From the NCBI RefSeq assembly GCF_016775155.1, contig NZ_JAEUGD010000066.1, positions 594,833-658,832 of the forward strand: 64,000 bases of DNA. Reading direction: 5' to 3'. Every line of letters starts with the position of its first letter. The stretch's first letter is position 1. Under the pieces are notes generated by a model. The model was not told the origin of the DNA. It ran no database searches and was given only the letters and a program-made list of their open reading frames with translations. This stretch comes from Fulvivirga marina (GTDB lineage Bacteria; Bacteroidota; Bacteroidia; Cytophagales; Cyclobacteriaceae). Below are positions 1 to 6,068 of this stretch, one piece after another. A program made the position numbers and the translations under genes.

Positions 1-1322
1 TCTCCTGTTCTAAACCAGCCTCCTTTGAAGAACACTTTGCTACTTTCGGCTTCTCTTTTCCAGTAACCTCTCATTACCTGCGGACCCCTTGCACAGATCT
101 CACCTACTTCGCCTTTACCCAACTTATTTCCGTTCTCATCAAATAACGCCATTTCTGTACTTGAGACAGGTAAACCAATTGTTCCCATTTTATGGGTACC
201 ATCCAGTGGGTTAACGGACAACACGGGAGATGTCTCGCTCAAGCCATAACCTTCTACCAACGGACCTCCTGTCACCTGTTCCCATTTCTTAGCGACAGCA
301 TCCTGAACTGCCATACCACCGCCGATCGCACCTTTTACTGATGAAAAGTCCACATCCTTAAAATCAGGCTGGTTAAGCAGACCATTGAAAAGAGTATTCA
401 CTCCGGTAAACAGGGTAAACTTGTGTTTTTTCAGTTCCTTAACGAACCCTTTCATATCACGTGGATTTGTTATTAGTACATTTTTAGCGCCGATCCTCAA
501 CATGAATATACCATTTACAGAGAGAGCAAAAATGTGATATAAAGGTATTGCTGTTATCATTGTTTCGGTTTTCCCCTCTTCCAAAAGAGGAGAAAACCAA
601 TGTCTGACCTGCTGTGTATGCGCCACTATATTTCGATGTGATAGCTGGGCTCCTTTAGAAACACCGGTGGTTCCACCAGTGTATTGTAAAAATGCCAAAT
701 CCTCAGGATCTATTTCAGGCTTCTTATACTCAAAATTACCCCCCTCAGAAAGGATTTTCTTGAACTTTACTGCATTGGGCAGATTAAATGAAGGCACCAT
801 TTTTTTTACGTGTTTCACTACGAAGTTCACAATGCTACCTTTTAAACCTCCCAACATATCACCTAGCTCAGTTACAATAACATGCTGGATGGAAGTATTT
901 TTAATAACCTTTTCCAGGTTCGAAGCAAAATTAGCTACGATAACCACCGCCTTAACTTCTGCATCTTTAAATTGATGTTCCATCTCACGGGGAGTATATA
1001 GTGGATTTGTATTTACCACTATCAGGCCTGCTCTGAGAGCTCCTACCAAAGCCACTGGATATTGCAACATGTTTGGCATTTGCAAGGCAATAGTATCTCC
1101 TTTTTTTAGGTTTAATTTATTTTGAAGGTATGCTGCAAAATTTTGTGATAAAACGTCGAGCTCTTTAAAGGTGATGGCCTTTCCCATATTCTCAAAAGCC
1201 TCCTTACCCGAATTTTTAGCAAATGAATCTTCAAACATCTCCACCAGAGACTTATACTCTATCTCACCGATCTCTGCAGGAATACTTTTTGGGTATCTTT
1301 TCACCCAGGGGAACTCGCTCAT
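1..1322 (-). CDS. fadD: long-chain fatty acid--CoA ligase, 3' end cut by window edge
   Basis: Adenylate-forming enzyme that activates fatty acids with ATP and CoA. The frame opens at ATG (1322-1320) and runs open to base 1, giving about 440 residues. Near residues 214-225 lies the AMP-binding P-loop YTGGTTGVSKGA; around 357-365 lies GYGLSETSP, the A5 motif of the superfamily. The visible end is the GGWFRTG motif, so the small C-terminal domain carrying the catalytic lysine is outside the window. Full-length FadD proteins are about 550 residues, so roughly a fifth is missing. No clear promoter box or Shine-Dalgarno was seen upstream. The chain-length preference is inferred from overall resemblance only. 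Confidence 0.92.
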   Translation of the reverse strand, partial: MSEFPWVKRYPKSIPAEIGEIEYKSLVEMFEDSFAKNSGKEAFENMGKAITFKELDVLSQNFAAYLQNKLNLKKGDTIALQMPNMLQYPVALVGALRAGLIVVNTNPLYTPREMEHQFKDAEVKAVVIVANFASNLEKVIKNTSIQHVIVTELGDMLGGLKGSIVNFVVKHVKKMVPSFNLPNAVKFKKILSEGGNFEYKKPEIDPEDLAFLQYTGGTTGVSKGAQLSHRNIVAHTQQVRHWFSPLLEEGKTETMITAIPLYHIFALSVNGIFMLRIGAKNVLITNPRDMKGFVKELKKHKFTLFTGVNTLFNGLLNQPDFKDVDFSSVKGAIGGGMAVQDAVAKKWEQVTGGPLVEGYGLSETSPVLSVNPLDGTHKMGTIGLPVSSTEMALFDENGNKLGKGEVGEICARGPQVMRGYWKREAESSKVFFKGGWFRTG

Positions 1323-1459: not shown

Positions 1460-1495
1460 AAAAAAGATGGCCCTCACTCCTAGCCATCTTTTTTT
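1460..1495 (-). terminator. rho-independent terminator of the tRNA-like gene
   Basis: Stem GATGGC/GCCATC with an 11-nt loop, flanked by A and T runs on both sides, so it could work in either direction. It lies about 30 nt past the 3' end of the tRNA-like RNA and ahead of the ligase gene, which suggests that the RNA is its own transcription unit. Confidence 0.75.
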
Positions 1496-1523
1496 CCAAT
1501 AAACCTAAACTTAAAGAAACTTG

Positions 1524-1652
1524 CTGTAGGGGGAGGATTCGAACCTCCACGAAGCGGTTAGTTCCCATTGCTATTGGATGCTTTAAGGAATTTATCCCGA
1601 ATTCTCCACCCTCGAGACCGGAGGGCTTGTCTGCCAGTTTCAACACCCTACA
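1524..1652 (-). ncRNA. unusual tRNA-like RNA, about 129 nt
   Basis: The ends form a perfect 7-bp acceptor stem (TGTAGGG with CCCTACA) with G as the unpaired discriminator base. Next to it sits a perfect T arm: GGAGG/CCTCC around loop TTCGAAT. After U8-G9 comes a 3-bp D stem (TTG/CAA) with a Leu-like D loop containing GG. A 5-bp stem CCCTC/GAGGG follows with 7-nt loop CGGTCTC, where an anticodon arm should be, but the invariant U33 is G and position 37 is a pyrimidine. Then comes a second 5-bp/7-nt hairpin (GAATT, loop CGGGATA, AATTC; plus-strand 1588-1604) and about 40 more nt before the T arm. Class II tRNAs are about 85-90 nt. It could be a tRNA-like regulatory RNA, an aberrant Leu/Ser-type tRNA, or a decayed one. 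No CCA is encoded. Confidence 0.6.
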
Positions 1653-1671: not shown

Positions 1672-1679
1672 CAAAGGTA
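1672..1679 (-). promoter_or_regulatory. -7 box of tRNA-like gene
   Basis: On the minus strand this reads TACCTTTG, an exact match to the Bacteroidota TAnnTTTG box, about 20 nt before the mature 5' end of the tRNA-like RNA. No convincing -33 TTTG was seen at the usual distance. Confidence 0.6.
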
Positions 1680-1788: not shown

Positions 1789-2259
1789 ATGCCTGCTAAT
1801 TATGAAATTGACAATATAGATCTCAAAATATTGGAGATCTTGCTAAAAAACGCAAAAAAACCCTACACCGAAGTAGCCAAACAAGTCTTTGTATCTGGAG
1901 GAACCGTACATGTACGGATGAAAAAGCTGGAAGACATGGGTATTGTAGAAGGTACTACTCTGAACCTTGACTATACGAAACTCGGATACGACATCACAGC
2001 ATTTATTGGGATCTTCTTATCTAAGAGTGCACTCTACGATGAAGTAATAGCTGAGCTAAAGCAAATACAGGAGGTTGTCAATGTACACTATACTACTGGC
2101 AATTATAGTATGTTTGCGAAAATACATTGCAAGGACACCCAACATTTGAAAGATGTTCTTCATGATAAAATTCAACGGGTAGAAGGTATAGTTCGCACCG
2201 ACACCATGATATCTCTGGAAGAAAGCATTAATCGCAGTATTCAACTCGAGATGAAGTGA
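1789..2259 (+). CDS. Lrp/AsnC family transcriptional regulator
   Basis: 156 residues, the usual size of the family. The N-terminal winged helix-turn-helix (about 8-60) contains the typical opening IDNIDLKILEILLKNAK and a recognition region around GGTVHVRMKKLE. The C-terminal RAM/ligand-binding domain (about 65-145) is complete. It is a single gene directly upstream of, and in line with, the suf operon, 120 bp away and with a separate promoter between them. The effector and targets cannot be read from sequence; an amino acid effector is the family norm. The nearby inverted repeat at 1745-1761 may be its own operator. Confidence 0.9.
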   Translation: MPANYEIDNIDLKILEILLKNAKKPYTEVAKQVFVSGGTVHVRMKKLEDMGIVEGTTLNLDYTKLGYDITAFIGIFLSKSALYDEVIAELKQIQEVVNVHYTTGNYSMFAKIHCKDTQHLKDVLHDKIQRVEGIVRTDTMISLEESINRSIQLEMK

Positions 2260-2379: not shown

Positions 2380-3825
2380 ATGAGTAAAGACAACCAGATT
2401 TTAGAAGAATTTACCTCGAAAGAATACGAGCACGGCTGGAACATAGATATAGAAGCAGACCAGGCTCCCAAAGGCCTGAATGAAGATATAGTCCGCTTCA
2501 TTTCCGCAAAAAAAGAGGAGCCCGAATGGCTTCTTGAATGGAGACTAAAAGCCTACAGGGCATGGACTAAAATGAAAGAGCCTAAATGGGCCAATGTTGG
2601 ATTTCCTGAGATCAACTACCAGGACATCATTTATTACTCAGCCCCTAAGCAGAAAGCAAAACCCAAGAGTCTGAATGAGGTAGATCCTGAGCTTTTAGAA
2701 ACTTTTAAAAAGCTGGGAATATCTCTGGAGGAGCAAAAAAGGTTAACAGGTGTAGCTGTTGATGCTGTTTTGGACAGTGTTTCTGTGGCCACTACTTTTA
2801 AAGACAAACTTGCTGAATTAGGCATCATATTCTGCTCTTTCAGCGAAGCTGTAAGGGAGCACCCGGAGTTGGTAAAAAAACACCTCGGCTCTGTTGTCCC
2901 TATTAGTGACAATTATTTCGCTGCCTTAAATTCTGCTGTATTCTCTGACGGTTCATTCTGCTACATTCCTAAAGGAGTACGTTGCCCTATGGAACTTTCC
3001 ACTTACTTCAGGATCAACGCAGCAAATACAGGACAGTTCGAGAGAACATTAATCGTGGCTGAAGAGGGCTCATACGTCAGCTATCTTGAAGGCTGTACAG
3101 CCCCGCAAAGAGATGAAAATCAATTACACGCTGCTGTAGTAGAAATATATGCTAAAAAAGATGCCGAGGTAAAATACTCAACGGTTCAAAACTGGTACCC
3201 TGGTGATAAAGATGGAAAAGGTGGCATTTACAATTTCGTAACCAAACGAGGTATTTGTGCCGGAGACAATTCTAAGATATCATGGACGCAGGTTGAAACC
3301 GGCTCTTCCATTACATGGAAATACCCTTCATGTATATTAAAGGGGGACAATTCAATTGGTGAATTTTACTCAGTCGCTGTAACTAATAACATGCAGCAAG
3401 CTGATACCGGCACCAAAATGATCCACATAGGTAAGAACACAAAATCAAGGATTGTATCTAAAGGTGTATCGGCCGGGCACTCACAAAATAGTTACCGCGG
3501 TCAGGTAAAAGTTATGAAAAGAGCTGAAGGTGCTCGTAACTTCTCTCAGTGCGATTCATTACTTATGGGGGATAAATGTGGAGCACATACTTTCCCATAC
3601 ATAGATATAGAAAACAAATCAGCTCAGATAGAGCATGAAGCTACCACTTCAAAAATCGGTGAAGATCAGATTTTCTATTGTACTCAGAGGGGAATAGATG
3701 AGGAAAAAGCTGTAGCCCTCATTGTGAATGGCTATTGTAAAGAAGTGCTAAATCAGCTACCTATGGAATTCGCTGTTGAAGCTCAAAAACTGCTAGCACT
3801 AACTCTCGAAGGTAGCGTTGGGTAA
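2380..3825 (+). CDS. sufB: Fe-S cluster assembly scaffold protein SufB
   Basis: 481 residues, full length for SufB. Works with SufC and SufD as the SufBC2D scaffold on which Fe-S clusters are assembled in the cytoplasm. Family landmarks are present: the [20 protein letters not shown] stretch, the core beta-helix, and the C-terminal block with [20 protein letters not shown] and [17 protein letters not shown]. The neighbours are sufC, sufD, sufS and sufE in the order usual for Bacteroidota. A 127-bp gap separates it from sufC; see the repeat entry. The call is secure from the sequence and the operon. Confidence 0.98.
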
Positions 3826-3860
3826 CCTTAAAAACGAATTGTTTTACTAACAAAATAATA

Positions 3861-3946
3861 CTGAATAATTAATAACTGTAAACAGTAACCGCCAATCACA
3901 ATCCGAACATTGAGAAACAGGCTGCGGCTAACTGTAAACTGAATAA
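3861..3946. repeat. short direct repeats in the sufB-sufC gap
   Basis: TAACTGTAAAC occurs at 3873-3883 and again at 3929-3939, and CTGAATAA occurs at 3861-3868 and 3939-3946. The first copy also forms the small palindrome ACTGT-AA-ACAGT. The gap is the longest inside an otherwise tight operon, so it could hold a processing site or an internal promoter, or be simple duplicated sequence. No function is proven. Confidence 0.4.
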
Positions 3947-3952
3947 CTGAAT

Positions 3953-4714
3953 ATGCTAAGCATTAAGAACTTACACGCATCAATTGAGGGAAAAGAGATA
4001 CTTAAAGGTATCAATCTGGAAGTGAAGCCAGGAGAAGTACATGCCATTATGGGACCTAACGGTTCAGGAAAAAGTACTTTGGCTTCTGTACTTGCCGGCC
4101 GTGAAGAGTATGAAGTAACTGCAGGTGAGGTGACTTATATGGGTCAGGACCTTCTGGACCTTGCCCCTGAAGAAAGAGCTCGTGAAGGTGTATTCCTTGC
4201 TTTTCAGTACCCTGTGGAAATACCCGGTGTGAGCACAACCAATTTCTTAAAAACTGCCCTTAATGAGGTTCGCGAGCATAAAGGCCTGGAACCCCTTGAT
4301 GCGGTATCTTTTCTTACCATGATGAAGGAAAAAATGAAGCTGGTAGAGATTGATCAAACCCTTCTCAGCCGTTCATTAAACGAGGGATTTTCTGGTGGAG
4401 AAAAGAAGCGCAACGAAGTCTTTCAGATGGCTATGCTTGAGCCAAAGCTTTCTATACTTGACGAAACTGATTCAGGATTGGATATTGATGCCCTACGTAT
4501 TGTTGCCAATGGTGTAAATAAACTTAAAACCAATGACAATGCTACGATCGTAGTAACCCACTATCAAAGACTTCTTGACTACATCGTTCCTGACTATGTG
4601 CACGTACTTTACAAAGGAAAAATAGTAAAATCCGGAAGCAAAGAACTTGCTCTTGAACTTGAAGAAAAAGGATACGACTGGATAAAAGAAGAAGCAGATA
4701 CTACTACAACGTAA
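3953..4714 (+). CDS. sufC: Fe-S cluster assembly ATPase SufC
   Basis: 253 residues. ABC-type ATPase of the SufBCD scaffold; soluble, not a transporter. Walker A GPNGSGKST is at residues 34-42, the ABC signature SGGEKKRNE lies near 143, and the Walker B region SILDETDSGLDIDAL follows, a form typical of SufC rather than of transport ATPases. Sixteen nt separate it from sufD. Its job is to drive a conformational change in SufB-SufD using ATP. Secure call. Confidence 0.98.
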   Translation: MLSIKNLHASIEGKEILKGINLEVKPGEVHAIMGPNGSGKSTLASVLAGREEYEVTAGEVTYMGQDLLDLAPEERAREGVFLAFQYPVEIPGVSTTNFLKTALNEVREHKGLEPLDAVSFLTMMKEKMKLVEIDQTLLSRSLNEGFSGGEKKRNEVFQMAMLEPKLSILDETDSGLDIDALRIVANGVNKLKTNDNATIVVTHYQRLLDYIVPDYVHVLYKGKIVKSGSKELALELEEKGYDWIKEEADTTTT

Positions 4715-4730
4715 AATTACTGGCAACAAT

Positions 4731-6068
4731 ATGAGCGAATCCACTAAAGACATAAGTTTAGAAAAAGAGTTTGTTGATAATTTCAAAGCACTGGAATCAC
4801 GAATAAACGGAGCCAGTGCTTTACCCGTACACCAAATTAGAAAGGAAGCTATCAGCGCTTTTCAAAAACTTGGAGTACCAACGACAAAAAATGAAGAATA
4901 TAAATTCACCGACCTTAATAAATCACTAAGGAAAAATTTTGACTTCACCTCCCCTTCCCTCTCGGGAAAGGTCAACAAAGAAACCATCAACAAATATTTC
5001 CTTCCGGAAATAGAAGCCAATAAACTGGTGTTCATTAATGGCGTCTACTCTGCTGAGTATTCATCAATTATGAGTCCGGAAGATCAACTCTCCGTAAAGG
5101 ATTTTGGTACTGCTTCAAAAGAAAACGAGGAGCAATTGCAATCTTATTTCGCCAAATATGCAGACTATCAATCTGATGCATTTATTGCACTAAATACGGC
5201 ATTTGCAGAGCATGGTTCTTTTATCCATATCCCTGAGAACAAAGTAGTTGATAAGCCTATAGCACTGTACTTTTTTAACGATGCTCAAACAGAAAAATGC
5301 TACAACCAACCCAGAAATCTGTTTGTGGTAGGAAAGAACAGCCAAGCTAAATTTATTGAAGTTTTCAACACCATAGGTGATTTTTCGAGCTTCACAAATA
5401 TTGTTTCTGAAATCGTAGTCAATGAAAACGCTCATGTTGACTACTACAAAATCCAGAATAATAAGGATACGGCTTTTCATGTAGGGACTACTCAAGTATG
5501 GCAAGCTCGCAGCAGTCACTTTTCTGCATATACCTTTACCCTAGATGGTGCTATGATTAGAAACAACTTGAATATAGCCTCTGACGGAGAAGGTTGTGAG
5601 ACTCACATGTATGGTTTGTATCTATTGCACGGCAAAACCCATGTTGATAACCACACTGTCGTTGACCACATCAAACCCAACTCTTTTAGTAACGAGTTGT
5701 ATAAAGGTATTATGGAGGATCAATCTCATGGTGTCTTCAATGGCAAAGTATACGTAAGACAGGCAGCCCAAAAAACAAACGCTTTTCAGTCAAATAAAAA
5801 CATACTGTTAAGTGATACAGCCACTATAAACTCTAAACCACAATTAGAGATATGGGCAGATGATGTTAAATGTTCTCATGGGTGTACTACCGGACAGCTT
5901 GATGAAGAAGCTATGTTTTACCTTCAATCACGTGGTATAAGCAAAGAGAGGGCTCGGGTATTGTTACTATATGCATTTGCCACAGATGTACTTGAAAACA
6001 TTAAACTGGAGCCTCTAAAAAATCACCTTGAAAACATAATTTCCGAACGATTACATAAAGACTTTTAA
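4731..6068 (+). CDS. sufD: Fe-S cluster assembly protein SufD
   Basis: 445 residues, a SufB paralogue. The N-terminal helical part (1-110) is followed by the beta-helix core and the C-terminal block with DDVKCSHGCTTGQLDEEAMF, in which the conserved Cys and His of SufD are present. Forms the heteromeric scaffold with SufB and SufC. It ends 2 nt before sufS, consistent with co-translation. Secure call. Confidence 0.97.
   Translation: MSESTKDISLEKEFVDNFKALESRINGASALPVHQIRKEAISAFQKLGVPTTKNEEYKFTDLNKSLRKNFDFTSPSLSGKVNKETINKYFLPEIEANKLVFINGVYSAEYSSIMSPEDQLSVKDFGTASKENEEQLQSYFAKYADYQSDAFIALNTAFAEHGSFIHIPENKVVDKPIALYFFNDAQTEKCYNQPRNLFVVGKNSQAKFIEVFNTIGDFSSFTNIVSEIVVNENAHVDYYKIQNNKDTAFHVGTTQVWQARSSHFSAYTFTLDGAMIRNNLNIASDGEGCETHMYGLYLLHGKTHVDNHTVVDHIKPNSFSNELYKGIMEDQSHGVFNGKVYVRQAAQKTNAFQSNKNILLSDTATINSKPQLEIWADDVKCSHGCTTGQLDEEAMFYLQSRGISKERARVLLLYAFATDVLENIKLEPLKNHLENIISERLHKDF

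What the first reader, a model, noticed from the sequence alone, without database searches (positions are those of the whole stretch)
1524..1652. A 129-nt tRNA-like RNA with two anticodon-like hairpins
Acceptor stem, D arm and T arm are intact with the elbow bases (GG in the D loop, TTCGAAT in the T loop), so it should fold like a tRNA. The presumed anticodon loop lacks U33 and has a pyrimidine at 37, and a second 5-bp hairpin with a 7-nt loop follows. Both loops start CGG. About 60 nt separate the first hairpin from the T arm, far more than any class II variable arm. It has a TAnnTTTG box and a terminator of its own, so it is probably expressed. It may be a tRNA-like regulatory RNA or a non-decoding tRNA (cell-wall or tetrapyrrole use), or a pseudogene.
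Basis: partly seen in the sequence, partly recalled or inferred. Interest (0 to 1): 0.72.

Follow-up and report, generated by a model that had tools for sequence, protein, structure and literature searches.

The report
Non-decoding tRNA for making asparagine
Many Bacteroidota bacteria and some of their phages carry an overlooked transfer-RNA-like molecule that probably does not read codons but may serve as a carrier on which aspartate is turned into asparagine; if confirmed, it would be an RNA devoted to making an amino acid.

Summary
The feature is real, exactly at 1524-1652, on the minus strand. It belongs to an RNA family for which I found no Rfam match and no paper; ARAGORN misses it. It occurs in seven of the Bacteroidota families sampled and in 54 IMG/VR contigs. 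Covariation supports a tRNA-Leu-like body with an enlarged variable arm.

In 78 distinct copies U1-A72, G2-C71, G73, U35, C36 and C38 are invariant and G34 is in 74: strong aspartate identity elements plus the first pair that the amidotransferase GatCAB needs. An AsnC-like gene is divergent beside the RNA in 26 of 32 genomes. gatB is in 32/32 RNA-positive and 2/21 RNA-negative genomes; where AsnRS and GlnRS are both present, gatB and RNA agree in 46/46.

Best reading: a non-decoding tRNA charged by AspRS and amidated by GatCAB, for asparagine supply under AsnC-type control. Co-occurrence is shown; charging, amidation and release are inferred. Against: A34/C34/U34 variants, no G10, two phage copies with A1-U72, six relatives with gatB but no RNA found (GlnRS untested).

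The parts
1524..1652 (-). tRNA-like RNA, 129 nt
1614..1620 (-). anticodon-type loop CGGUCUC (positions 32-38; GUC at 34-36)
1550..1608 (-). enlarged variable region, 59 nt: 5-bp stem 1604-1608/1550-1554, 3-bp stem 1597-1599/1555-1557, internal loop 1591-1596/1558-1561, variable stem
1537..1548 (-). T loop and 5' side of T stem
1672..1679 (-). TAnnTTTG promoter box (TACCTTTG)
1461..1496 (-). hairpin with T tail, likely terminator (by eye; not reported by the scan)
1789..2259 (+). AsnC-like Lrp/AsnC-family regulator gene, divergent from the RNA
3..1322 (-). AMP-binding enzyme gene (fadD-like) downstream of the RNA, cut by the window edge; context
2380..6068 (+). sufB, sufC, sufD (context)

Best explanation
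The RNA is a dedicated, non-decoding tRNA of the tRNA-dependent asparagine pathway. It is transcribed from a promoter beside a divergent asnC-like gene and processed like a tRNA. AspRS charges it with aspartate through G34-U35-C36, C38 and G73; GatCAB recognises U1-A72 and amidates Asp to Asn on the RNA; Asn is released or handed on and feeds AsnRS and metabolism. U37, the frequent loss of U33 and the large variable arm keep the charged RNA off the ribosome. Phage copies would support asparagine supply during infection. Shown by computation: the family, the fold, the invariant bases, the AsnC-like neighbour, the co-occurrence with gatB. Inferred: expression, charging, amidation, release, regulation, the phage role.
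For: The invariant bases include the five strong bacterial Asp determinants (G34 in 74/78) and the minor G2-C71 (PMC9976931, passages), and the U1-A72 pair required by GatCAB (PMC4206432, passages). gatB (TIGR00133) in 32/32 RNA-positive vs 2/21 RNA-negative genomes. Of these two, G047 carries a short-armed member with U1-A72, G73 and loop CUAUCUC, and G098 lacks GlnRS over cut-off. AsnRS in 53/53. Of the 46 genomes with AsnRS and GlnRS, gatB and RNA agree in 46 (27 both, 19 neither; Fisher 2.4e-13, not corrected for kinship). Joint absences inside f22, f23 and f1. Second set of 54: gatB in 41/41 RNA-positives and in G049, whose copy is split over contig ends. AsnC-like gene divergent at 136-225 bp in 26/32. 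asnA or short E. coli-type asnB in 3/33 vs 16/20, G047 counted as positive.
Against: Position 34 is C or U in 4/78 and A in Hymenobacter and Pontibacter copies; G10 and G1-C72 of tRNA-Asp are absent; 2 of 40 complete distinct phage copies have A1-U72. gatB without a detected RNA: G008 (gatB in two frames), G036, G037, G041, G051, G056, GlnRS untested. 28 of 32 RNA-positives have an asnB homologue over cut-off (long form), which may make asparagine. No enzyme for releasing Asn was identified or sought. In f26 (5/5) and G147 the RNA is not beside asnC, and G059, G178, G413 and G047 have the asnC homologue without the RNA beside it. No AsnC binding site was demonstrated. The 46/46 agreement is not corrected for kinship. 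G73 with a long variable arm would also suit SerRS.
Confidence: 0.62

Rival explanations
1. A regulatory RNA of the asparagine response: AsnC-type control and perhaps its charging state report Asp/Asn supply, while GatCAB acts on tRNA-Asn charged by a non-discriminating AspRS.
For: Divergent AsnC-like gene; large arm with a conserved internal loop; the published model for cells with AsnRS, GlnRS and GatCAB uses tRNA-Asn (PMC4206432, passages).
Against: Invariant U1-A72 with an Asp-type loop is what a substrate needs; the short member G047 keeps these without the arm; phage copies are seen without tested AsnC.
Confidence: 0.15
2. A carrier that donates Asp or Asn to another pathway (envelope, lipid or peptide) rather than supplying free asparagine.
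For: Same base and gatB evidence; most hosts keep an asnB homologue.
Against: Neighbour is AsnC-like; no transferase was recurrent in the listed neighbour clusters, though no transferase family was searched for genome-wide.
Confidence: 0.1
3. A class II tRNA charged with serine (G73 plus long variable arm), or a Glu/Gln carrier in lineages with C34.
For: Ser identity in bacteria includes G73, G2-C71 and a large variable region (PMC9976931, passages); CUC loops in some copies.
Against: Arm spacing is Leu-like, not Ser-like; the conserved UC at 35-36 and C38 would be unexplained; gatB link.
Confidence: 0.07
4. A decoding tRNA for Asp codons with an unusual arm.
For: GUC anticodon in most copies.
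Against: U33 only 49/78, purine 37 in 0/78; the window's genome has two ordinary tRNA-Asp genes.
Confidence: 0.05
5. A tRNA pseudogene or chance fold.
For: Not found by ARAGORN or RF00005; single-sequence fold not better than shuffles.
Against: Covariation, conservation across families, promoter box.
Confidence: 0.01

Closest known systems
tRNA-dependent asparagine synthesis (Deinococcus, Thermus, Bdellovibrio: AspRS + GatCAB on tRNA-Asn)
   Same: AspRS, GatCAB and U1-A72; found together with AsnRS and GlnRS
   Different: There the carrier is the decoding tRNA-Asn and a non-discriminating AspRS is required; here a separate RNA with an Asp-type loop could let an ordinary AspRS do it
tRNA-Leu (class II)
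   Same: D arm and G-U48 spacing before the T stem
   Different: G73 instead of A73, GUC-type loop, 59-nt variable region in the window copy with its own conserved loop
Non-decoding tRNAs for cell-wall synthesis (staphylococcal tRNA-Gly; recalled)
   Same: tRNA body with lost decoding features
   Different: Other amino acid and partners; different structure
allo-tRNA and tRNA-Sec (PMC7609411, passages)
   Same: Unusual cloverleaf with a long variable arm
   Different: Here 7-bp acceptor and 5-bp T stem; GUC-type rather than UCA anticodon

Membership tests
Canonical tRNA (RF00005, ARAGORN) | Detected by tRNA models | tested here: not met
   ARAGORN 0 genes in the window; RF00005 lists 44 tRNAs in the genome at E<=0.001, neither copy among them. 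The short member G047 is called tRNA-Asp(atc) by ARAGORN
Canonical tRNA (RF00005, ARAGORN) | U33 and purine 37 | tested here: not met
   U33 in 49/78; position 37 is U 75, C 3
tRNA-Leu | A73 | tested here: not met
   G73 in 78/78
AspRS substrate | G73, G34, U35, C36, C38 | tested here: met
   78, 74, 78, 78, 78 of 78; G34 not universal
AspRS substrate | G10 and G1-C72 | tested here: not met
   Position 10 is mostly A or U; first pair U1-A72 in 78/78
GatCAB substrate | U1-A72 | tested here: met
   78/78 in A3; 162/163 in the host set; 38 of 40 complete distinct viral copies
GatCAB substrate | Amidation of the charged RNA | not testable with these tools
   Needs enzymes and transcript
tRNA-dependent Asn synthesis | GatCAB in the host | tested here: met
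   gatB in 32/32 and 41/41 plus G049; gatA and gatC not searched
tRNA-dependent Asn synthesis | No other asparagine synthetase | tested here: inconclusive
   asnA in 2/32; short asnB in 0/32; long asnB homologues over cut-off in 28/32
tRNA-dependent Asn synthesis on tRNA-Asn | Non-discriminating AspRS | tested here: inconclusive
   The window genome's AspRS is bacterial type, TIGR00459 712 bits; TIGR00458 227.3 under its cut-off 368.4; specificity not settled by this
tmRNA | Called as tmRNA with a tag frame | tested here: not met
   No tmRNA called in the window; phage contigs carry tmRNA as separate genes
Any Rfam family | Match above gathering score | tested here: not met
   Six sub-threshold chance matches only in 1000-2200

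The most novel reading that the evidence does not exclude
An RNA whose job is to be a biosynthetic carrier for an amino acid: it joins AspRS identity to the GatCAB first-pair mark, so that a cell with ordinary AspRS, AsnRS and GlnRS can make asparagine on RNA under an AsnC-type regulator, and phages carry their own copy as an auxiliary metabolic RNA.
Probability: 0.58. Interest if true: 0.92.

Novelty: new variant of a known kind. Interest (0 to 1): 0.85.

Why it matters
It would explain why many Bacteroidota keep GatCAB although they have AsnRS and GlnRS (retention in such bacteria is discussed as unsettled, and for some as possibly vestigial, in PMC4206432), and would show a tRNA turned from decoding into a dedicated biosynthetic carrier. 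It adds a widespread RNA gene family, present in phages, that the tRNA finders tried here overlook, and the model can be tested with two enzymes and one transcript.

Tried and rejected
Single-sequence folding was uninformative. INPHARED phages and PLSDB plasmids gave no match by blastn. A resemblance of the anticodon arm to the anti-Shine-Dalgarno end of 16S rRNA (my idea from memory, not computed) was dropped because C32 and stem bases vary in copies not found by the pattern. An AsnC-type palindrome over the -33 box was not clearly above control promoters (7 or more of 8 arm matches in 11/54 against 3/60, no preferred centre, control less AT-rich). The suf and fadD-like neighbours are conserved in some clades only and are taken as shared ancestry. 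For the six gatB-positive relatives without the RNA, the model hits that I fetched (seven stretches) are ordinary tRNA-Leu.

Selection and dropped rows: the genome contigs pattern fixed most of the anticodon arm, so arm conservation was counted on BLAST- and model-found copies (A3: 80 matches, 78 distinct; the model itself was trained partly on pattern-found rows). Of 199 extracted elements 12 were dropped as mis-delimited, cut, N-filled or not members; 46 of 74 representatives went into A1. The 53-genome set holds 32 of the 40 RNA-positives (eight f1 genomes left out) and 21 of its RNA-negatives, all named, before gatB was searched. RNA-positive means a best hit of at least 91 bits or 99 bits; G047 and G049 were reclassified after inspection and counts are given with and without them. 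The list is cut at its weak end. Some genomes are incomplete (G022 83%, G046 88%).

Papers: passages read of PMC7609411, PMC9976931, PMC4206432 and PMC3927822; all other papers were seen only in search listings. No listed title or abstract describes this RNA; the library holds open-licence papers only and no preprints.

Full report
What is there. The element is on the minus strand at 1524-1652. The covariance model built from relatives gives the same two ends (138.1 bits). The same genome has one further copy, G000:C40:11949-12079, at 132 bits; the eleven other hits at E <= 10 score 52.6 bits or less and coincide with ordinary tRNA genes. ARAGORN finds nothing in the window and no Rfam family reaches its threshold in 1000-2200.

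Conservation. BLAST finds it in 42 of 58 genomes (own genome included), with up to six matches per genome and tandem arrays. The model finds it in 40 of 395 genomes drawn across the phylum, with a gap in best scores between 91.8 and 68.7 bits. Counted by family from that list: f1 9/9, f11 3/3, f13 2/3, f22 7/10, f23 11/13, f26 5/5, f66 3/3, none in the other families sampled. The 68.7-bit hit (G047) proved to be a short-armed member (below).

Structure. In 46 diverse copies 94.3% of cells pair, 19 of 32 pairs change on both sides, and the covariation score is 0.378 against 0.169 in shuffles (0/500), 0.129 or less when slid. In 80 matches in loci found by BLAST or the model (78 distinct) the figures are 94.9%, 19 pairs, and 0.336 against 0.164 (this alignment was fitted to the model). 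The body resembles tRNA-Leu: in the same genome's tRNA-Leu(CAG) the D arm and the G-U48 spacing before the T stem are alike. The variable region has a 5-bp stem, a 3-bp covarying stem, an internal loop RAYAAA/CUAA (similar to the UAA/GAN motif, recalled) and a stem of variable length. The anticodon stem varies little.

Invariant bases. In 78 distinct copies U1-A72, G2-C71, G73, U35, C36 and C38 are invariant; G34 is in 74, U37 in 75, U33 in only 49. Published bacterial aspartate determinants are G73, G34, U35, C36 and C38, with G10 and the first two acceptor pairs (PMC9976931, passages); the RNA has the five strong ones and G2-C71, but not G10 or G1-C72. U1-A72 is the pair that bacterial GatCAB recognises (PMC4206432, passages). 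The window's genome has ordinary tRNA-Asp(GTC) with G1-C72 and tRNA-Asn with U1-A72. The RNA thus joins an Asp-type anticodon loop to the amidotransferase mark.

Neighbourhood. In 49 of 118 loci an Lrp/AsnC-family gene lies upstream and divergent (the 8-kb stretches do not always reach it), also where the other neighbours differ. In the window it is 1789-2259; NCBIfam places it nearest AsnC (168.9 bits, under the cut-off of 227) against LrpA 89.1 and Lrp 54.3. Of 32 RNA-positive genomes 26 have the RNA divergent from this gene at 136-225 bp, in f1, f11, f13, f22, f23 and f66; f26 (5 genomes) and G147 do not. RNA-negative G074, G171, G098 and G102 have no match to the gene at E 1e-20, the negatives of f24, f25, f29 and f30 have weaker ones, and G047, G059, G178 and G413 have a good one without the RNA beside it. 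In E. coli asnC is divergent from asnA (recalled). The TAnnTTTG box is upstream of 79 of 158 host copies against 4.6 in base shuffles; later members of several tandem arrays lack it.

Test of the idea. The bases and the neighbour suggested AspRS plus GatCAB, so I asked whether RNA and GatCAB occur together. In 53 genomes (32 RNA-positive, 21 negative, named beforehand) gatB is over cut-off in 32/32 and 2/21. AsnRS is in 53/53. GlnRS is over cut-off in 46/53, missing in G441, G221, G047, G337, G329, G395 and G098. Among the 46 with both synthetases gatB and RNA agree in 46 (27 with both, 19 with neither). The two exceptions both lack GlnRS, so GatCAB would be needed for Gln; and G047's 68.7-bit hit is a short member, called tRNA-Asp(atc) by ARAGORN, with U1-A72, G2-C71, G73 and the loop CUAUCUC but almost no variable arm. 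Fisher tests are; they ignore kinship, but joint absences occur inside f22, f23 and f1. In a second set of 54 relatives all 41 RNA-positives, and G049 whose copy is split over two contig ends, have gatB. Of the other 12, six lack gatB (G022, 83% complete; G024, G028, G042, G046, 88% complete; G048) and six have it (G008, in two frames; G036, G037, G041, G051, G056), with GlnRS untested.

Asparagine synthetases. asnA is in 2 of 32 RNA-positives and 6 of 21 negatives; with G047 moved, 3 of 33 and 5 of 20. Short E. coli-type asnB (open frames of 541-578 aa, over cut-off) is in 15 negatives and in none of the 32 positives; long forms (594-717 aa) over cut-off are in 28 of the 32 and may or may not make asparagine; G045, G303, G323 and G205 have neither asnA nor asnB over cut-off. 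This fits an RNA route to asparagine but does not prove a need for it.

Phages. 54 IMG/VR stretches carry it; 53 score 81.6 bits or more, and two of the 54 are cut by a stretch end. 35 of the 54 have at least one further tRNA or tmRNA called, nine a tmRNA and one a doubtful one. Phage-type genes lie near it in the four contigs checked: Sak4-like protein, exonucleases and PhoH (L154), DNA ligase and endonuclease (L191), endolysin-like peptidase and DNA methyltransferase (L158), endonuclease (L163). Of 41 distinct copies one is truncated; of the other 40 all have G73 and G2-C71, 38 have U1-A72 and two have A1-U72; the search pattern fixed most of the arm in this set.

Mechanism and certainty. 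Shown by computation: a structured RNA family, its invariant bases, its divergent regulator gene, and its association with GatCAB, perfect in the 46 sampled genomes where GatCAB has no evident role in translation. Inferred: expression, Asp charging, amidation, release of Asn, AsnC-type control, use by phages. In the published model for cells with AsnRS, GlnRS and GatCAB a non-discriminating AspRS charges tRNA-Asn; 18 of 547 genera, Bacteroidetes among the clades, had all three and no Asn synthetase (PMC4206432, passages). The window genome's AspRS found is of bacterial type, of unknown specificity. The new RNA would make non-discrimination unnecessary.

Verdict. Existence of a conserved RNA family 0.99; link to GatCAB and Asp/Asn about 0.8; dedicated carrier for asparagine synthesis 0.62. 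It is a new RNA family as far as these searches go and, if the model holds, a new variant of tRNA-dependent amino acid synthesis.

Noticed in passing
L158 (4832-8251, -), L160 (4332-5973, +), L194 3170-3298, L195 5065-5412, L188 39-153: Phage contigs hold repeated tRNA-Leu-like genes with similar constant ends (AGTCAGGTGGCG......CAGGTTCGAATCCTGTCCTGACTAC) around unrelated inserts of roughly 50-110 nt in place of the anticodon and variable arms. They look like a tRNA scaffold presenting variable RNAs.
   Followed up: partly
L152, L153, L155, L163, L164, L169, L176, L180, L188: Phage copies of the main RNA with an insertion or extra hairpin in the D loop.
   Followed up: no
G047:C23:55338-55413 (L326 838-914, -): Short-armed member of the family, called tRNA-Asp(atc) by ARAGORN; other 'tRNA-Asp(AUC)' genes in relatives may be the same.
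   Followed up: partly
G401:C54:82131-84050: In an RNA-negative genome an AsnC/Lrp-like gene lies tail to tail with asnS, about 80 bp apart.
   Followed up: no
G009:C32, G012:C214, G013:C66, G020:C28: gatB and an RNA copy lie about 9-17 kb apart on one contig; three of the four are from one genus.
   Followed up: no
L266 (G000:C64) and L260, L261 (G000): Two neighbouring tRNA-like genes to which ARAGORN gives four-base anticodons (ctgg, cttc), and four differing tRNA-Cys(gca) genes.
   Followed up: no
L060 and G007:C33: A Fulvivirga sediminis scaffold has the same length (444519) as contig C33 of a genus-mate, so the window is probably from Fulvivirga.
   Followed up: no
L026, L036, L046, L149 and similar: Long-armed copies in hosts and phages share a further module GGGUUGACCAC inside the variable arm, role unknown.
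   Followed up: no
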